In this document: piece by piece, positions 36,946 through 43,561 of the stretch
Layout of the letters: each line of letters begins with the position of its first letter
How positions within the stretch are numbered: the stretch's first letter is position 1
From: Myxococcales bacterium
GTDB lineage: Bacteria > Myxococcota_A > Polyangia > Fen-1088
Reading direction: 5' to 3'
Assembly: GCA_003158455.1 (NCBI GenBank)
Contig: PMJO01000124.1
Location: 1 to 47,051 of the forward strand
Length of the DNA: 47,051 bases
The notes under the pieces: model-generated
Database searches by the model: none
Told to the model about the DNA's origin: nothing
Seen by the model: the letters and a program-made list of their open reading frames with translations, nothing else
Position numbers and translations under genes: made by a program

Positions 36946-38046
36946 TTGGACCTACGATCGTTCACCATCGAGGAGCTGCGCGAGCGCGTGGCGCGCCAGG
37001 GTGAACCCCCATTTCGCGCCGAGCAGGTCTTCCGTTGGCTGCACGGCCCTGGGCCGGGCGGCATAGGCAGCGTGCGCGCACTCGATGCTGCTTGCAACAT
37101 TCCCCGCTCCCTACGCGACGCCCTGCTGGCCGAGGCACCCCTGCACCCCATCAGCCTGGACGGCGTGGTGGTCGCGGCCGATGGCACCCGCAAGTTCCGT
37201 TTCCGCACCCACGACGGCTGCGCCATCGAGTCAGTGCTGATCCCCGACGACAAACCCGAGCGGGCCAAGCTGACCCTTTGCCTGTCATGCCAAGCCGGGT
37301 GTGCCTGGGGCTGCGCGTTCTGCGCCACCGCCACCCTCGGCTTTCACCGGCACCTGTCGGCCGGCGAGATGGTCGAACAACTCTACTGGGGCATGGAGTC
37401 GGCGGGGTGCAGGCCGAGCAACGTGGTCTTCATGGGCATGGGCGAGCCGTTGCACAATCTGGATTCGGTGCAGCGGGCGCTCAGGATCTTCGAGCATCCT
37501 TGGGGTGCGGGGCTGTCGCCCCGACGCCTCACGGTTTCCACCGCCGGGGTTGTGCCCGGGATCGATGCCCTGGGCAAGCTGCGGCCGGCGCCCAATCTGG
37601 CCATCTCGCTCAACGCCACGACCGACGAAGTGCGCGACCGGCTCATGCCGATAAACCGACACTGGAACCTGGCCGCCCTGCTGGCTGCCGCTCGCCGCTT
37701 CCCGCTCGCCCACCACCGCAGCATCACCTTCGAATACGTCCTGCTCGCCGGTGTCAATGACAGTGACATGGATGCGGCTCGCCTGCCCCGCCTGCTGCGT
37801 GGTATTCCGAGCAAGGTGAACATCATCCCGTACAACCCCGTGCCCGGCCTGCCCTTCGAGCGCCCCAGCGCGGAGCGGGCCCTGGCCTTCCAGAACGCGG
37901 TTCGGCTGGCCGACATTCCAGTCTACATACGCACCTCGCGCGGCTCGGACGCCGCAGCGGCGTGCGGGCAACTGGCGGCGCGCGCAGATGAACCCCTGCT
38001 CCCGTGCGAACTGGCCGCGCCGGCCAGGACAGGACGCGCCTCATGA
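36946..38046 (+). CDS. rlmN: dual-specificity RNA methyltransferase RlmN
   Basis: 366 residues. The N-terminal helical domain (FTIEELRERVARQGEPPFRAEQVFRWLH) is followed by the radical-SAM core with cluster cysteines Cys119-x3-Cys123-x2-Cys126 (GCAWGCAFC). FMGMGEP, the SAM-binding region STAGVVPGI and the C-terminal RTSRGSDAAAACGQL follow; the last holds the second catalytic Cys. It methylates C2 of A2503 in 23S rRNA and A37 in tRNAs. Start is TTG 36946, chosen because the family N-terminus begins there. Its stop overlaps the polyprenyl synthase start (ATGA), so this housekeeping gene heads the menaquinone operon. Confidence 0.95.
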   Translation: MDLRSFTIEELRERVARQGEPPFRAEQVFRWLHGPGPGGIGSVRALDAACNIPRSLRDALLAEAPLHPISLDGVVVAADGTRKFRFRTHDGCAIESVLIPDDKPERAKLTLCLSCQAGCAWGCAFCATATLGFHRHLSAGEMVEQLYWGMESAGCRPSNVVFMGMGEPLHNLDSVQRALRIFEHPWGAGLSPRRLTVSTAGVVPGIDALGKLRPAPNLAISLNATTDEVRDRLMPINRHWNLAALLAAARRFPLAHHRSITFEYVLLAGVNDSDMDAARLPRLLRGIPSKVNIIPYNPVPGLPFERPSAERALAFQNAVRLADIPVYIRTSRGSDAAAACGQLAARADEPLLPCELAAPARTGRAS

Positions 38047-39059
38047 GGGGGGCGGCGCTGCGCCGGCGGGATAGCCGTGCCCCGGGCGCGACGCGGCTCT
38101 CGGCTGCGGAGGTGCTGGCCTTGGTCAGCGATCCCATGCAGGCGGTTGAGGCACGGCTGCTGGCTCAGATGGACAGCCCCATGGGGCGCATCCCCGAGGT
38201 GAGTGGCCATTTGCTCGGCGCGGGCGGCAAGCGCTTGCGGCCGCTTCTGGCGGTGCTTGCTTGCCGGGCAACCGACGCGCCCTTGAACGTGGCTATCGCG
38301 GTCGGTTGCGCCGCCGAGCTCATCCACACCGCCACGCTCTTTCACGATGACGTGGTCGACGGTGGGGCGGTTCGGCGGGGACGGCCCGCCGCGCGCATGG
38401 TGTATGGCAACGGCATCGCCGTGCTGGTGGGCGATTTCTGCTTGGCGCGCGGGCTGGGAACCGTCTCGGCCACCGGGTCGCTGGTCGCGGTCGAGTCCCT
38501 GGCCGCAGCGGTGACCGAAATGGCCGAGGGCGAAGTGGCACAACTGGAGGGCGCGGGCGATCCCGAGACCACTGCCGACAGTTACTTCGACGTCATCGAT
38601 CGCAAAACCGGATCGCTGATGGCCTGGTGTGCGCGGGTGGGCGGGGTGCTGCCCGCGCCACTCGACGCGGCCTTGGCCCGCTACGGTCGCTTGCTCGGGC
38701 GCGCGTTCCAGATCACCGACGACGTGCTCGACTGTGCGGGCGACGAGACCGCAAGTGGCAAGTCCCCCGGGCGCGATCTGTGCGATGGTAAACTGACCCT
38801 GCCGGTGTTGCTGGCCTGCCAGGCTTGCCCGGCCTTGCGTGATGAGATCCGTTCTGCCATGGGCGAATCGGGCGTATCGATGGAAGACGCTGCCCGCATC
38901 GTGCGGGCGACGCGCGCCGCGGGCGGCCTCGACCGCGCCCGCGCCGAGGCCATGGCCTTGGCTGACAACGCGATTGCCGAGCTGCACGCCGTGCCCCCCT
39001 CGTCCTACCGGGATGCGCTGGCTTCGCTGGCGCGCCTGTCGGTCGAACGAGTGGCGTGA
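38043..39059 (+). CDS. all-trans polyprenyl diphosphate synthase (probable menaquinone side chain)
   Basis: 338 residues. The first aspartate-rich motif is HDDVVDGG and the second is FQITDDVLD. There are also GGKRLRPLL (substrate-binding Lys/Arg), RRGRPAARM and the GKSPGRDLCDGKLTLPVL segment of trans-isoprenyl synthases. It elongates farnesyl/geranylgeranyl diphosphate with isopentenyl diphosphate; chain length cannot be set from sequence. The operon position next to ubiE and mqn genes says that the product is probably the menaquinone prenyl tail. ATG 38043 overlaps the rlmN stop, and its own stop overlaps the ubiE start. Confidence 0.9.
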   Translation: MRGAALRRRDSRAPGATRLSAAEVLALVSDPMQAVEARLLAQMDSPMGRIPEVSGHLLGAGGKRLRPLLAVLACRATDAPLNVAIAVGCAAELIHTATLFHDDVVDGGAVRRGRPAARMVYGNGIAVLVGDFCLARGLGTVSATGSLVAVESLAAAVTEMAEGEVAQLEGAGDPETTADSYFDVIDRKTGSLMAWCARVGGVLPAPLDAALARYGRLLGRAFQITDDVLDCAGDETASGKSPGRDLCDGKLTLPVLLACQACPALRDEIRSAMGESGVSMEDAARIVRATRAAGGLDRARAEAMALADNAIAELHAVPPSSYRDALASLARLSVERVA

Positions 39060-39748
39060 TGGCCCCGGCGGCAACCGACGTACGCGCCATGTTCGACCGC
39101 ATCGCCGGCCGGTACGACACCGCCAATCGGGTCATGTCGGTCGGCCTCGATGTGCTCTGGCGGCGTCGGGCCATGCGTTGCTTGCTCGACGGACTCGAAC
39201 CGTCGCCCTGGGTGCTGGATCTGGGCGCGGGCACCCTCGGCGGCGCGGTCGAAATTATGCGCCAGCGGCCGGACGCGCATGTAGTGGCCGCGGACTTCGC
39301 CCGCACTATGCTGGCCGCGGGTCGGCGCAAGCCGGGCGCGGTCGCAGTGGCCCTGCACGCGGCCGACGTCCACCGGCTGCCCTACCGGGATGGCGCCTTT
39401 GCCGCGGCCTTTTCGGGTTTCTGTGTGCGCAACCTGCGCGACCTGGCGCTGGCCTTGGCCGAACTGCGCCGGGTGGTGCGCCCCGGGGGCCGCTTGGCGG
39501 TTCTGGAATTCTTTCGGCCGCTACGACCGCGTCCTTTTTGGGACGGGCTTTGGACAACACGCATGTTGCCCCTGCTGGGATGGGCGACAAGTGGCGATCG
39601 CGCGGCCTATCGTTACCTGCCCGAATCGATTCAGGGTTTCGTTACCCGGGCGGAATTCGAAGTCCAGCTCCGGGCTGTCGGGTTCGCCGAGGTGCGCGGC
39701 CAGAACTTCTTTCCCGGCGGCATCGCCTCGCTGGTGGAGGCGCGATGA
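39056..39748 (+). CDS. ubiE: UbiE/MenG-type quinone C-methyltransferase
   Basis: A 230-residue class I methyltransferase. N-terminal FDRIAGRYDTANRVMSVGLDVLWRR is the UbiE signature, motif I is VLDLGAGTLGG (slightly unusual, the family usually has CGTGD), and PYRDGAFAAAFSGFCVRNLRD is the diagnostic central block. The C-terminal YLPESIQGF and FFPGGIASLVEA match too. It methylates demethylmenaquinone to menaquinone. The start is GTG 39056 (overlapping the previous stop, GTGA) or ATG 39059. The next gene starts within its stop codon (ATGA). Confidence 0.93.
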   Translation: MMAPAATDVRAMFDRIAGRYDTANRVMSVGLDVLWRRRAMRCLLDGLEPSPWVLDLGAGTLGGAVEIMRQRPDAHVVAADFARTMLAAGRRKPGAVAVALHAADVHRLPYRDGAFAAAFSGFCVRNLRDLALALAELRRVVRPGGRLAVLEFFRPLRPRPFWDGLWTTRMLPLLGWATSGDRAAYRYLPESIQGFVTRAEFEVQLRAVGFAEVRGQNFFPGGIASLVEAR

Positions 39749-40461
39749 ACGCGGCGGACACCGGCGGCGCGGCGGCGGGTCAATACCCTGACCTCTTCAG
39801 CCTCGGCCGCACTGCCCAGGCTGCGGCGCGGGCTGCGACGGATGGCCGCGGCTTCTTTGCCTGCTGGCGCCGCCTGCTTGCCACGGGACTCTCGCAGGGG
39901 CCCGCATCTGCGGCATCAGCCTTTGTGGAGGAGGCTGATTGTGCCGGTCAATATGCTGCTGCGGTCGCGGCCGGTGCCAACACCTTCATCGCGACTTCGC
40001 TTCCCGCGCTGATTGAGGCCACCCGCCACGGGCTGCGCGGCTTGCTCCGGCTTCCCCTGCCGGCCGAGGAACCCGTGCCGCAACAGGAACGACGCTTGTC
40101 CCAGCTTGCGGACCAGGTTCGCGCGGGTCTGGTTCTCGACGGCGTCGTGCCCACGCCCGCGCAAGACTGCCTGGGCCTGGCAACCTTGCTCTTTGTCGCC
40201 CGCTGCCGGCTGGGGCTGGCCGGGGTGCCGCATGTGCTTGTCGATTTGGATCGGCTGGGCCCCAAGTTGGGCCAGCTTGCCTTGGGCTTCGGCGCCGACG
40301 AGCTTTGCGGGCCTATCGTAGTAGAGCGGGCGCTGCGCCTGGGTGACAACGTCGGCAGCCACGCCATCACGCGCGCCGAGGCGGCACAACTCCTGCGTGG
40401 GGCTGGGCTGCGCGCTTGCGAGCGCGTGGCAGGAGGCGGGCTGGAGGAGTTCGCGCCGTGA
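39745..40461 (+). CDS. MqnC/MqnE C-terminal-like protein without radical-SAM core
   Basis: 238 residues. Residues about 140-228 align with the last quarter of MqnC/MqnE/CofH proteins. GLATLLFVARCRLGL corresponds to LALARLYLDN, then come LGPKLGQLALGFGADELCGP (compare MqnC GPAVGQVALRFGGNDFGS) and ITRAEAAQLLRGAGLRACER. No CxxxCxxC cluster motif exists anywhere. The N-terminal 135 residues (Ala-rich, helical, WRRLLATGLSQGP) are not recognised. It overlaps ubiE and mqnE by 4 bases on each side. It may be an accessory or regulatory subunit of MqnE or MqnC, or a degenerate duplicate; the role is unknown. Confidence 0.7.
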   Translation: MNAADTGGAAAGQYPDLFSLGRTAQAAARAATDGRGFFACWRRLLATGLSQGPASAASAFVEEADCAGQYAAAVAAGANTFIATSLPALIEATRHGLRGLLRLPLPAEEPVPQQERRLSQLADQVRAGLVLDGVVPTPAQDCLGLATLLFVARCRLGLAGVPHVLVDLDRLGPKLGQLALGFGADELCGPIVVERALRLGDNVGSHAITRAEAAQLLRGAGLRACERVAGGGLEEFAP

Positions 40462-41585
40462 CCCTCGCCTCGATTTGCGAAAGGTTGAACGCCGGGGTTC
40501 CGCTCTCTTTCGAGGATGGGGTTGCGCTTTTTCGCGAACCCGATCTGCTGAAGTTGGGTGAGTTGGCCAACCAGGCACGCGAGCGGCGTCACGGCGATCG
40601 CACCACCTTCAATCGCAATCTGCACGTCAACCCGACCAACCTGTGCATAGCCGGCTGCAAGCTGTGCTCGTTCTCGCGCCGCAGCCCAGAGCAGCCGGGG
40701 GCCTACACCCTGAGCCTGGCGCAGGTGTGGGACAAACTGAAGTCACGCCTGCAGGCGGGCCGCTTGACCGAAGTGCACCTGGTCGGTGGCCTCAGTGAAA
40801 GCCTGCCTTTCGACTACTACCTCGAACTTGTAGCAGGCTGCAGACAGCTGCAGCCCACCCTTCATATCAAGGCCTTCAGCGCGGTCGAGATCTTCCACTT
40901 TCACAGGGTTTTCCAACTAGAGGTGCGCGAGGTATTGCAGCGTTTGCGCGCGGCCGGGCTCGGCTCGCTGCCCGGGGGTGGCGCCGAGATCTTCGCCCCC
41001 CGCGTACGCCAGCGCATCTGTCCCAACAAGTGCAACGCGGAGGAATGGTTGGACGTGCACCGCACCGCCCACCAGATGGGTTTGCGATCCAATTGCACCA
41101 TGCTCTACGGCACCATCGAGACAATTGAGGAGCGGGTCGAGCACCTACTGCGCTTGCGGGCGCTGCAGGATGAAACCGGCGGGTTTCAGGCATTCGTCCC
41201 GCTTGCCTTTCACCCCGAGAACAACTCGCTTGCCCATATTCCGGCGCCCTCGGCCGTCGAAGATCTGCGGGTCTGTGCGGCGGCGCGGCTGCTGCTGCAC
41301 AATATCCCGCACATCAAGGCCTACTGGGTTTCGCTGGGGCTCAAGACCGCGCAGACCGCACTGTGGTTCGGCGCCGACGATCTGGACGGCACCGTACAAG
41401 AGGAAAAGATCTATCACCTGGCGGGCTCGGATGCGCCGCAGGCCCTGACCCCGGCAGAGATCGTGCGCCTCATCCGCGCTGCCGGCCGCACGCCGGTGGA
41501 ACGCGACACGCTCTACCACGTGGTCGCCCAGGGCGAGGCGCTGCTGGCCGACGCTCACGAGATGCCCGTGGGAGGGTTGAGATGA
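40458..41585 (+). CDS. mqnE: aminofutalosine synthase
   Basis: A 375-residue radical-SAM enzyme. The cluster motif is Cys63-x3-Cys67-x2-Cys70 (NLCIAGCKLCSF), after the HVNPTNLC lead-in. GGLSESLPFDYY, HIKAFSAVEI, LPGGGAEIF and RQRICPNKCNAEEWL follow, then the C-terminal WFGADDLDGTVQEEKIYH, all typical of MqnE. It adds the adenosyl radical to 3-[(1-carboxyvinyl)oxy]benzoate (the MqnA product) to form aminofutalosine. GTG 40458 overlaps the preceding stop, and its stop overlaps the start of the mqnA/mqnC fusion. Confidence 0.95.
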   Translation: MTLASICERLNAGVPLSFEDGVALFREPDLLKLGELANQARERRHGDRTTFNRNLHVNPTNLCIAGCKLCSFSRRSPEQPGAYTLSLAQVWDKLKSRLQAGRLTEVHLVGGLSESLPFDYYLELVAGCRQLQPTLHIKAFSAVEIFHFHRVFQLEVREVLQRLRAAGLGSLPGGGAEIFAPRVRQRICPNKCNAEEWLDVHRTAHQMGLRSNCTMLYGTIETIEERVEHLLRLRALQDETGGFQAFVPLAFHPENNSLAHIPAPSAVEDLRVCAAARLLLHNIPHIKAYWVSLGLKTAQTALWFGADDLDGTVQEEKIYHLAGSDAPQALTPAEIVRLIRAAGRTPVERDTLYHVVAQGEALLADAHEMPVGGLR

Positions 41586-43561
41586 GCCAGCGGTTGCGCC
41601 TGGCCGCGGTGTCCTTCCTCAACGCGCGGCCCATCACCTACGGCATCGAGCAGGGACTGGTGGGCTCTCAGCGCTTCGACCTGCGTTTTGCCGAGCCCTC
41701 GCGCTGCGCGGCCGCGGTAGCCGCGGGCGAGGCAGATCTGGGCCTCATACCCATCGCTGCCTACGCGGCCTCGAACGAGGAACTGCGCGTGGTGCCCGGC
41801 ATCGCAGTGGCCAGCCGCGGCCCGGTGCGCACGGTGGTGCTGGTAGGCCAGGTACCCTGGGAAGAGATGACCGTGATCGCGCTCGACGGGGCTTCGCGCA
41901 CCTCGCAGATGTTGGCGCGCCTTCTCAGCAAGGAGCGCGGCCTTCATCCCGATTTCGTCGAAGTGCCGCATGATCAGATCGCGGACGTGGCAAGCGGCAC
42001 GCGTGGCGCGCTCATCATCGGCGATCTCGGCTTGCAGATCGACGGACGCTTTCGCCATGTCTACGACCTGGGTGAAAAATGGCACGCCCTGGTGGGGCTT
42101 CCCTTCGTCTACGCTGTGTGGGCCGGACGGCCGGGCGTGGTCGGCAGCGAAGACGTGGCGCTGTTGCAAGAAAGCCTGCGGCTGGGGGTGGAACGCCGAA
42201 AGGAAATCGGACGGGCCTGGGCCCTTCACAATGGCGCCGATCCTGGGGTGGGCGAAGACTACTTGCTGAACAACATTTGCCATCGCCTCGGTTCCGACGA
42301 ATTGTCCGGCGCTACGTCTTTCCTGGCGCGCAGCCATGCGGCCGGGCTTCTGGCCAAACCCGCACGGGTACGCCTTTTCGACGCCCCGGCGCCGCCGGAA
42401 CCGCAGTCACGCCCGGCGCGGTCGCTGGACGGCCTGCTCCACGACGCGGCCGCGGGCGCGCGGATGACCCTCGCTGAAGGAGTGCGCCTGTACTCGGAGG
42501 CGGACTTGTTTGACTTGGGCCAGGCCGCTGACCTTCGTCGGCAGTCGTTGCATCCCGACGGCGTGGTGACCTACATCATCGACCGCAACATCAACTACAC
42601 GAATGTTTGCACCACTTGCTGTTCCTTCTGCAATTTCCACCGGCCCCCAGGCCACAGGCAGGCCTACACGCTTTCACGGGAAGAACTGGCCCAAAAACTG
42701 CGCGAGACCATCGAGTTGGGCGGCGTGCAGGTGTTGCTCCAGGGCGGCATCAACCCGGATCTGTCGCTCGCCTACTACGAAGATCTGTTCCGCTTCATGA
42801 AGGCGAACTTTCCTTTGGCCATTCACGGGCTTTCGCCCGAGGAGATTCGCTATTTGGCAGAACGCGAGAAGCTGCCGGTGGGGGCCGTGCTCGAACGCTT
42901 GCTGGTCGCGGGCCTGGACTCGGTGCCAGGCGGCGCGGCCGAGATCCTGGACGACGAAGTCCGCCGGCGCATCTCACCGAAGAAATGTTCTGCCGACACC
43001 TGGATCGATGTCATGCGCGCGGCGCATGGGCTGGGGCTGCGTACTAGCGCCACCATGGTCTTCGGTTTCGGCGAGTCGCCCCGCCAACTGGTCGGGCACC
43101 TCGACCGCCTGCGCCGCCTGCAGGACCAAACCGCGGGCTTCACCGCCTTCATCTGCTGGAGCTTCCAGGCCGAGGGCACGCGCCTGCCTCTGCACGACGA
43201 CACCGGAAGCCTCCGCTACCTGCGCGTCCTGGCCCTGGCGCGCCTGTACCTCGACAACTTTCCCAACCTGCAGGTCTCCTGGGTCACCATGGGACCGGCG
43301 GTGGGACAGGTTGCCCTGCGCTTCGGGGGCAACGACTTTGGCTCGGCCATGATCGAAGAGAATGTGGTCGCCACTGCGGGCACGGTGTTCAAGATTTCCG
43401 CGGACGATATCGAACGCACCGTGCGCGGCGCGGGTTTCATTCCTTGCCGTCGCAACATGCGCTACGAGTTGCAGGGGCGTCCGTCGCGAAGCCCTGAAGC
43501 GGGTGGTGACCGTGATCACTTGGCCACGACCTCCTGCGACTATCGTGGGATCTTGGTGTAG
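41582..43561 (+). CDS. mqnA/mqnC: bifunctional chorismate dehydratase (MqnA) - cyclic dehypoxanthinyl futalosine synthase (MqnC) fusion
   Basis: 659 residues in a single uninterrupted frame. Residues about 5-266 are MqnA: VSFLNARPITYGIEQGL, ADLGLIPIAAYA, GASRTSQMLARLL and GVGEDYLLNN. A Pro-rich linker (about 267-283) leads to MqnC (about 284-645): cluster Cys343-x3-Cys347-x2-Cys350 with an extra Cys346, LLQGGINPDL, VPGGAAEIL, RISPKKCSADTW and the C-terminal FGGNDFGSAMIEENVV. MqnA dehydrates chorismate; MqnC cyclises dehypoxanthine futalosine, two non-adjacent steps. In most genomes these are separate genes. ATG 41582 overlaps the mqnE stop (ATGA). MqnB, MqnD and prenyl-transferase genes are not in the window. 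Confidence 0.93.
   Translation: MSQRLRLAAVSFLNARPITYGIEQGLVGSQRFDLRFAEPSRCAAAVAAGEADLGLIPIAAYAASNEELRVVPGIAVASRGPVRTVVLVGQVPWEEMTVIALDGASRTSQMLARLLSKERGLHPDFVEVPHDQIADVASGTRGALIIGDLGLQIDGRFRHVYDLGEKWHALVGLPFVYAVWAGRPGVVGSEDVALLQESLRLGVERRKEIGRAWALHNGADPGVGEDYLLNNICHRLGSDELSGATSFLARSHAAGLLAKPARVRLFDAPAPPEPQSRPARSLDGLLHDAAAGARMTLAEGVRLYSEADLFDLGQAADLRRQSLHPDGVVTYIIDRNINYTNVCTTCCSFCNFHRPPGHRQAYTLSREELAQKLRETIELGGVQVLLQGGINPDLSLAYYEDLFRFMKANFPLAIHGLSPEEIRYLAEREKLPVGAVLERLLVAGLDSVPGGAAEILDDEVRRRISPKKCSADTWIDVMRAAHGLGLRTSATMVFGFGESPRQLVGHLDRLRRLQDQTAGFTAFICWSFQAEGTRLPLHDDTGSLRYLRVLALARLYLDNFPNLQVSWVTMGPAVGQVALRFGGNDFGSAMIEENVVATAGTVFKISADDIERTVRGAGFIPCRRNMRYELQGRPSRSPEAGGDRDHLATTSCDYRGILV

What the first reader, a model, noticed from the sequence alone, without database searches (positions are those of the whole stretch)
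41582..43561. MqnA and MqnC fused in one polypeptide
One 659-codon frame carries a complete-looking chorismate dehydratase (MqnA) followed by a complete radical-SAM cyclic dehypoxanthine futalosine synthase (MqnC). The two enzymes catalyse the first and a later, non-consecutive step, with MqnE and the nucleosidase acting between. Direct channelling is therefore not the obvious reason for fusion. It may instead fix stoichiometry or organise a larger complex with MqnE and the extra protein encoded upstream. I know of no described case of this fusion but cannot search.
Basis: partly seen in the sequence, partly recalled or inferred. Interest (0 to 1): 0.8.

Follow-up and report, generated by a model that had tools for sequence, protein, structure and literature searches.

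The report
Fused MqnA–MqnC menaquinone-pathway enzyme
In a whole phylum of bacteria (Myxococcota), two enzymes of the vitamin-K2 (menaquinone) pathway that act at non-neighbouring steps are made as one two-headed protein, the result of an old gene fusion that both halves have survived intact; it is real and widespread, but mechanistically it looks like a simple tether, not a new kind of machine.

Summary
Confirmed. Window 41582–43561 (+) encodes 659 aa: an intact MqnA (PF02621, 160 bits; residues 5–251) joined by a ~15-residue variable linker to an intact MqnC (TIGR03699, 450 bits, above its 428 cut-off; residues 294–629). It is not an artefact. The same fusion occurs in same-genus and same-family genomes, in 24 of 24 sampled phylum genomes with an MqnC-grade hit, and in cultured Nannocystis, Enhygromyxa, Plesiocystis and Anaeromyxobacter. 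The fused MqnA and MqnC halves each form one clade, so one ancient fusion explains Myxococcota; one Planctomycetales MAG suggests a second. In unfused outgroups (Acidobacteriota, Gemmatimonadota, Planctomycetota) mqnA and mqnC are adjacent genes in the same order, so stop-codon loss is the likely route. All key residues checked are conserved, both halves are under purifying selection, the linker (8–42 aa) is unconserved, and no internal start is conserved. Best reading: a bifunctional enzyme with two independently working, flexibly tethered domains; channelling is neither shown nor needed. No description was found in the open-access papers searchable here. A side finding may be more novel: the gene upstream (39745–40461) encodes a shrunken, cluster-less MqnE-like protein kept in menaquinone operons of Myxococcota and Acidobacteriota.

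The parts
41582..43561 (+). fused mqnA-mqnC gene, 659 aa; ATG overlaps the mqnE stop (ATGA), suggesting translational coupling
41594..42334 (+). chorismate dehydratase (MqnA) half, residues 5-251; N14 aligns with the Asn replaced by Asp in PDB 7ywc
   Evidence: PF02621 160 bits, SCO4506 structures E 2.4e-25, N14 and S105 invariant in 63 fusions
42377..42424 (+). inter-domain linker, residues ~266-281 (FDAPAPPEPQSRPARS); low model confidence at 269-278; length and sequence vary among relatives
42461..43468 (+). cyclic dehypoxanthine futalosine synthase (MqnC) half, residues 294-629; radical SAM motif C343-x3-C347-x2-C350 present
   Evidence: TIGR03699 450.3 bits vs cut-off 428.1; cysteines invariant in 63 fusions
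40458..41585 (+). mqnE (aminofutalosine synthase), probable GTG start in a GTGA overlap with the upstream gene; TIGR03700 473 bits (cut-off 434.6)
39745..40461 (+). MqnE-like protein without CxxxCxxC ('X', 238 aa): N-terminal and C-terminal MqnE signatures kept, barrel shortened; conserved operon member
   Evidence: no Pfam hit; hhalign to MqnE E 1.7e-30; fold nearest MqnE 6xig; motif absent in 40/40 relatives
39056..39748 (+). menG/ubiE-type demethylmenaquinone methyltransferase (TIGR01934 170 bits, cut-off 158); GTGA and ATGA overlaps with its neighbours
38004..39059 (+). polyprenyl diphosphate synthase (PF00348), probable side-chain supply, first menaquinone-type gene of the cluster

Best explanation
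The ORF encodes a bifunctional enzyme. Its N-terminal domain dehydrates chorismate to 3-[(1-carboxyvinyl)oxy]benzoate (step 1). Its C-terminal radical-SAM domain cyclises dehypoxanthine futalosine (step 4). MqnE (next gene upstream) and a separate nucleosidase act in between, and MqnD, encoded elsewhere in the genome, finishes the naphthoate. It arose once, before the radiation of futalosine-using Myxococcota, by loss of the mqnA stop codon in an existing mqnE-mqnA-mqnC gene order, and has been kept since with a short, flexible, unconserved linker. The two domains fold and work independently; the fusion ensures 1:1 synthesis and co-localisation, with no need for direct channelling. Shown: the fusion, its conservation, single clade, conserved residues, purifying selection, presence of MqnE and an MqnD-like gene. 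Inferred: activities, stop-loss route, functional benefit.
For: Both halves match their families end to end. The genome has no other mqnA or mqnC: the only other PF02621 gene is MqnD-like, and the only other MqnC-like hits are MqnE and X. Fusion intact in the genus, the family and other families; about 41 Myxococcota/delta loci from GTDB contigs incl. isolates; 24 of 237 sampled phylum genomes have an MqnC-grade hit and all carry it in frame with MqnA (G090 read). Fused rows form one clade for MqnC (SH-aLRT 99, 41 rows) and MqnA (97). Unfused outgroups carry mqnA then mqnC as neighbours with a stop between. Catalytic residues invariant; linker 8-42 aa, no conserved internal Met. dN/dS 0.17-0.20 (MqnA) and 0.10-0.11 (MqnC). 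Model: two confident domains, uncertain linker, pTM 0.57.
Against: No biochemistry. MqnB is only tentative: a 58.9-bit TIGR03664 hit against a cut-off of 124.7. A shallow 15-sequence alignment cannot exclude a fixed domain interface. One relative (G275) carries a fused protein whose MqnC half has lost the three cysteines, so the tether can outlive catalysis. Two of the loci have breaks inside the gene (L058 stop, L077 frameshift), probably sequence errors but not verified.
Confidence: 0.87

Rival explanations
1. The fusion is one strand of a metabolon: MqnA-MqnC, MqnE and the cluster-less MqnE-like protein X assemble, so that labile intermediates are passed MqnA to MqnE to nucleosidase to MqnC inside a complex.
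For: menG, X, mqnE and mqnA-C overlap by four bases each, suggesting coupled translation; X-mqnE-mqnA-C order is kept in most Myxococcota, and X-mqnA-mqnC in Acidobacteriota, where mqnE lies elsewhere; X has lost its cluster motif but keeps its fold.
Against: Linker length and sequence are free; Anaeromyxobacter keeps the fusion without a detectable X between menG and mqnE; no interface was predicted or tested.
Confidence: 0.25
2. The fusion is a near-neutral by-product of gene adjacency: stop-codon loss in an ancestor, tolerated and inherited, with no functional gain (a sub-case of the best explanation, differing only on whether there is a benefit).
For: mqnA and mqnC are already adjacent in unfused phyla; linker unconserved; a second fusion may exist in one Planctomycetales MAG (L096).
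Against: No reversion found among 24 sampled genomes with MqnC, and long retention across Polyangia and Anaeromyxobacter.
Confidence: 0.4
3. The reading frame is fused but the working proteins are separate, through internal initiation or proteolysis at the linker.
For: Unstructured linker.
Against: No conserved Met in the linker region: at most 10% at any position; the window's own M295 is Met in 5%.
Confidence: 0.07
4. Assembly or sequencing artefact (missed stop or frameshift).
For: The window is from a draft genome of 368 contigs.
Against: Independent genomes of the same genus, family and other families, including cultured isolates, have the same fusion.
Confidence: 0.01

Closest known systems
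MqnA, chorismate dehydratase (e.g. Streptomyces coelicolor SCO4506, PDB 2nxo/7ahr)
   Same: Fold, full-length domain, Asn in the FLN motif
   Different: Here it is the N-terminal half of a larger protein
MqnC, cyclic dehypoxanthine futalosine synthase (TIGR03699)
   Same: Above the curated cut-off, CxxxCxxC, CofH_C region
   Different: Carries an N-terminal MqnA domain instead of starting the protein
MqnE, aminofutalosine synthase (PDB 6xig/6xi9)
   Same: Same radical-SAM superfamily; closest solved fold to the MqnC half and to protein X
   Different: MqnC half scores 312 bits on the MqnE model, below its 434.6 cut-off; X lacks the cluster motif
CofGH (bifunctional FO synthase, PRK09234)
   Same: A fusion that holds a CofH-type radical-SAM domain of the same superfamily
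   Different: There (general knowledge) both halves are radical-SAM enzymes making one product; here a non-SAM dehydratase is joined to a radical-SAM enzyme three steps later

Membership tests
MqnA (chorismate dehydratase) | Complete VitK2_biosynth domain over cut-off | tested here: met
   PF02621 160.1 bits vs 26, profile 1-250/252
MqnA (chorismate dehydratase) | Closer to MqnA than to MqnD | tested here: met
   Only MqnA-type chains in the PDB hits of this half at E<=0.001; the genome's other PF02621 gene hits MqnD 2czl and AF1704
MqnA (chorismate dehydratase) | Active-site Asn of the FLN motif | tested here: met
   N14 aligns with the Asn that is Asp in the 7ywc variant; N in 63/63 fusions
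MqnA (chorismate dehydratase) | Chorismate dehydration activity | not testable with these tools
   needs an enzyme assay
MqnC (cyclic dehypoxanthine futalosine synthase) | TIGR03699 equivalog cut-off | tested here: met
   450.3 vs 428.1
MqnC (cyclic dehypoxanthine futalosine synthase) | Radical SAM CxxxCxxC | tested here: met
   C343, C347, C350, invariant in 63
MqnC (cyclic dehypoxanthine futalosine synthase) | Cyclisation of dehypoxanthine futalosine | not testable with these tools
   needs an anaerobic assay
MqnE / CofH (considered for the C-terminal half) | TIGR03700 or TIGR03551 cut-off | tested here: not met
   312.3 vs 434.6 and 295.3 vs 374.1
MqnE (considered for protein X, 39745-40461) | Radical SAM CxxxCxxC and family cut-off | tested here: not met
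   33 bits vs 434.6; motif absent in all 40 X-type ORFs, although homologous to MqnE
MqnB futalosine hydrolase (partner at G000:C26) | TIGR03664 cut-off | tested here: inconclusive
   58.9 vs 124.7 bits, but beside the MqnD-like gene

The most novel reading that the evidence does not exclude
The MqnA-MqnC fusion, MqnE and the cluster-less MqnE-like protein X form a defined menaquinone-precursor complex in Myxococcota, with X as a pseudoenzyme scaffold or regulator; X is an undescribed component of the futalosine pathway shared with Acidobacteriota.
Probability: 0.2. Interest if true: 0.65.

Novelty: new variant of a known kind. Interest (0 to 1): 0.4.

Why it matters
A phylum-wide fusion of non-consecutive enzymes is a clean natural test of whether fusions need channelling to persist. 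It is a handy marker of the Myxococcota futalosine pathway, and profile-based pathway surveys that assign one function per protein may miss or mislabel it. The futalosine pathway is a proposed antibacterial target in other bacteria (general knowledge), so new architectures and an unrecognised partner protein bear on how its enzymes cooperate.

Tried and rejected
(1) Artefact: rejected by relatives. (2) C-terminal half as MqnE or CofH, N-terminal half as MqnD: rejected by cut-offs and PDB hits. (3) 'Same-frame, one-stop' mqnA/mqnC pairs in Acidobacteriota as possible readthrough: looked striking, but stops are mixed (TAG, TGA, TAA), MqnC has its own start just after, and the search ranking favours same-frame pairs; not pursued as a signal. 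(4) Fusion common in Planctomycetota: the 'open_frame_aa' column seemed to show seven more fusions; the loci showed real stops between the genes, so only L096 stands, a single MAG. (5) Single origin including L096: AU test rejects (p 4e-7). (6) Literature: terms for mqnA/mqnC fusion, futalosine + fused + mqnE, futalosine + Anaeromyxobacter and Myxococcota quinone surveys gave no description. (8) Promoter/terminator scan at chance level.

Full report
OBSERVATION. Window 41582–43561 (+) is one open frame of 659 codons starting with ATG. Residues 5–251 match Pfam VitK2_biosynth from end to end (160 bits; cut-off 26) and residues 294–629 match the NCBIfam equivalog for MqnC from end to end (450.3 bits; cut-off 428.1), while MqnE (312 bits) and CofH (295 bits) stay below their cut-offs. 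In the PDB the first half finds only MqnA-type chains and the second MqnE, the nearest solved relative; a structure model agrees (TM to target 0.82–0.84 with MqnE, 0.81–0.89 with MqnA). N14 lies where the 7ywc variant of SCO4506 has Asp for Asn, and the three radical-SAM cysteines are C343, C347 and C350.

NOT AN ARTEFACT, NOT UNIQUE. Three same-genus genomes with the whole gene read through the junction at 88–89% identity, and the family at 65–69%. A scan of GTDB contigs gave 45 loci with MqnA and MqnC in one frame, about 41 of them Myxococcota or 'Deltaproteobacteria', including isolates of Nannocystis pusilla, Enhygromyxa salina, Plesiocystis pacifica SIR-1, Anaeromyxobacter oryzisoli and A. 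soli. In a sample of 237 genomes of the phylum, 24 have an MqnC-grade hit (435 bits or more) and all 24 carry it in frame with MqnA; 22 of these show no stop inside the match, or one only where the match overruns the gene's end; G090 was read and is fused; G279 has one TGA in the match that I did not inspect. The other hits score 257 bits or less and look like MqnE or CofH; there is a clear gap between the two groups.

ORIGIN. In trees of each half, fused rows form one clade (MqnC: 41 rows, SH-aLRT 99; MqnA: 97), with MAGs labelled Planctomycetota (L079), Bacteroidetes (L092) and unassigned (L074) inside it on long branches; transfer and mis-binning cannot be told apart here. One Planctomycetales MAG (L096) is fused but sits with the unfused L076; holding all fusions in one clade is rejected (p 4e-7). 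Seven apparent further Planctomycetota fusions turned out to have stops between the genes, so a second fusion rests on one MAG. In Acidobacteriota, Gemmatimonadota and Planctomycetota mqnA and mqnC are neighbours in that order, so loss of the mqnA stop is the simplest route (inference).

HOW IT PROBABLY WORKS. The genome has no second mqnA or mqnC. MqnE is encoded just upstream (473 bits). An MqnD-like gene, and a nucleosidase that is a weak futalosine hydrolase match, lie side by side on contig C26. So the fused protein must supply steps 1 and 4 if the pathway runs. Both halves are under purifying selection (dN/dS 0.17–0.20 and 0.10–0.11; linker 0.15–0.31 on 26 codons). The linker is 8–42 residues (median 16), poorly conserved (mean top-residue frequency 0.31 against 0.57 and 0.73 in the domains), and no Met in it is common enough for a conserved internal start. 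The model has two confident domains and a low-confidence linker with pTM 0.57, from only 15 sequences, so a fixed interface is neither supported nor excluded. I read this as two independent enzymes on a flexible tether. Because MqnE and a nucleosidase act in between, direct channelling from MqnA to MqnC is not possible; a larger assembly is possible but unproved.

OPERON AND PROTEIN X. Polyprenyl synthase, menG, X, mqnE and mqnA–C follow each other with four-base overlaps (GTGA 39056, ATGA 39745, GTGA 40458, ATGA 41582). X (238 aa) has no Pfam hit, yet its family aligns with MqnE over 276 columns (E 1.7e-30), models confidently (pLDDT 90.8) and is nearest to MqnE in the PDB. None of 40 relatives has CxxxCxxC. 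X lies just before mqnE in many Myxococcota and just before mqnA in Acidobacteriota, whose mqnE is elsewhere; Anaeromyxobacter lacks a detectable X. It looks like a pseudoenzyme derived from MqnE. Its function is unknown; scaffold or regulator is a guess.

NOVELTY. No paper in the searchable library describes the fusion. Database entries may exist that list this architecture automatically; I could not check. It is a new domain arrangement of known enzymes: new variant of a known kind, moderate interest.

Noticed in passing
window 39745-40461 (+): Cluster-less, shortened MqnE-like protein X conserved in menaquinone operons of Myxococcota and Acidobacteriota; in L033, L034 and L038 it is shorter still (an internal ~40-residue stretch is missing).
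   Followed up: partly
window 39745-39748 versus L033 3730-4290: In the same-genus relative a UbiX-like flavin prenyltransferase gene sits between menG and X; in the window menG and X overlap directly and flavoprotein (PF02441) genes are on other contigs, C330 and C341.
   Followed up: partly
L116 3302-5452 (G275:C1236): A divergent fused MqnA-MqnC-like protein whose MqnC half has lost all three cluster cysteines (LGRTIVTTDVDVDGFGPW), directly downstream of an MqnE-type gene.
   Followed up: partly
L058 7033-7035: Nannocystis pusilla Na p29 has an in-frame TGA inside the MqnC half shortly after the cluster motif, unlike strain DSM 53165; probably a sequence error, not checked.
   Followed up: no
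window 43478-43558: The last ~27 codons of the fusion have no counterpart in close relatives, whose stop lies near NMRYE(L/F).
   Followed up: partly
L001 1453-2301 (-) and 716-1390 (+): An mqnD-like gene and a futalosine-hydrolase-like nucleosidase lie side by side on another contig; the nucleosidase is well below the family cut-off.
   Followed up: partly
L079, L092: Fusion-clade proteins in MAGs labelled Planctomycetota and Bacteroidetes: transfer or mis-binning.
   Followed up: no
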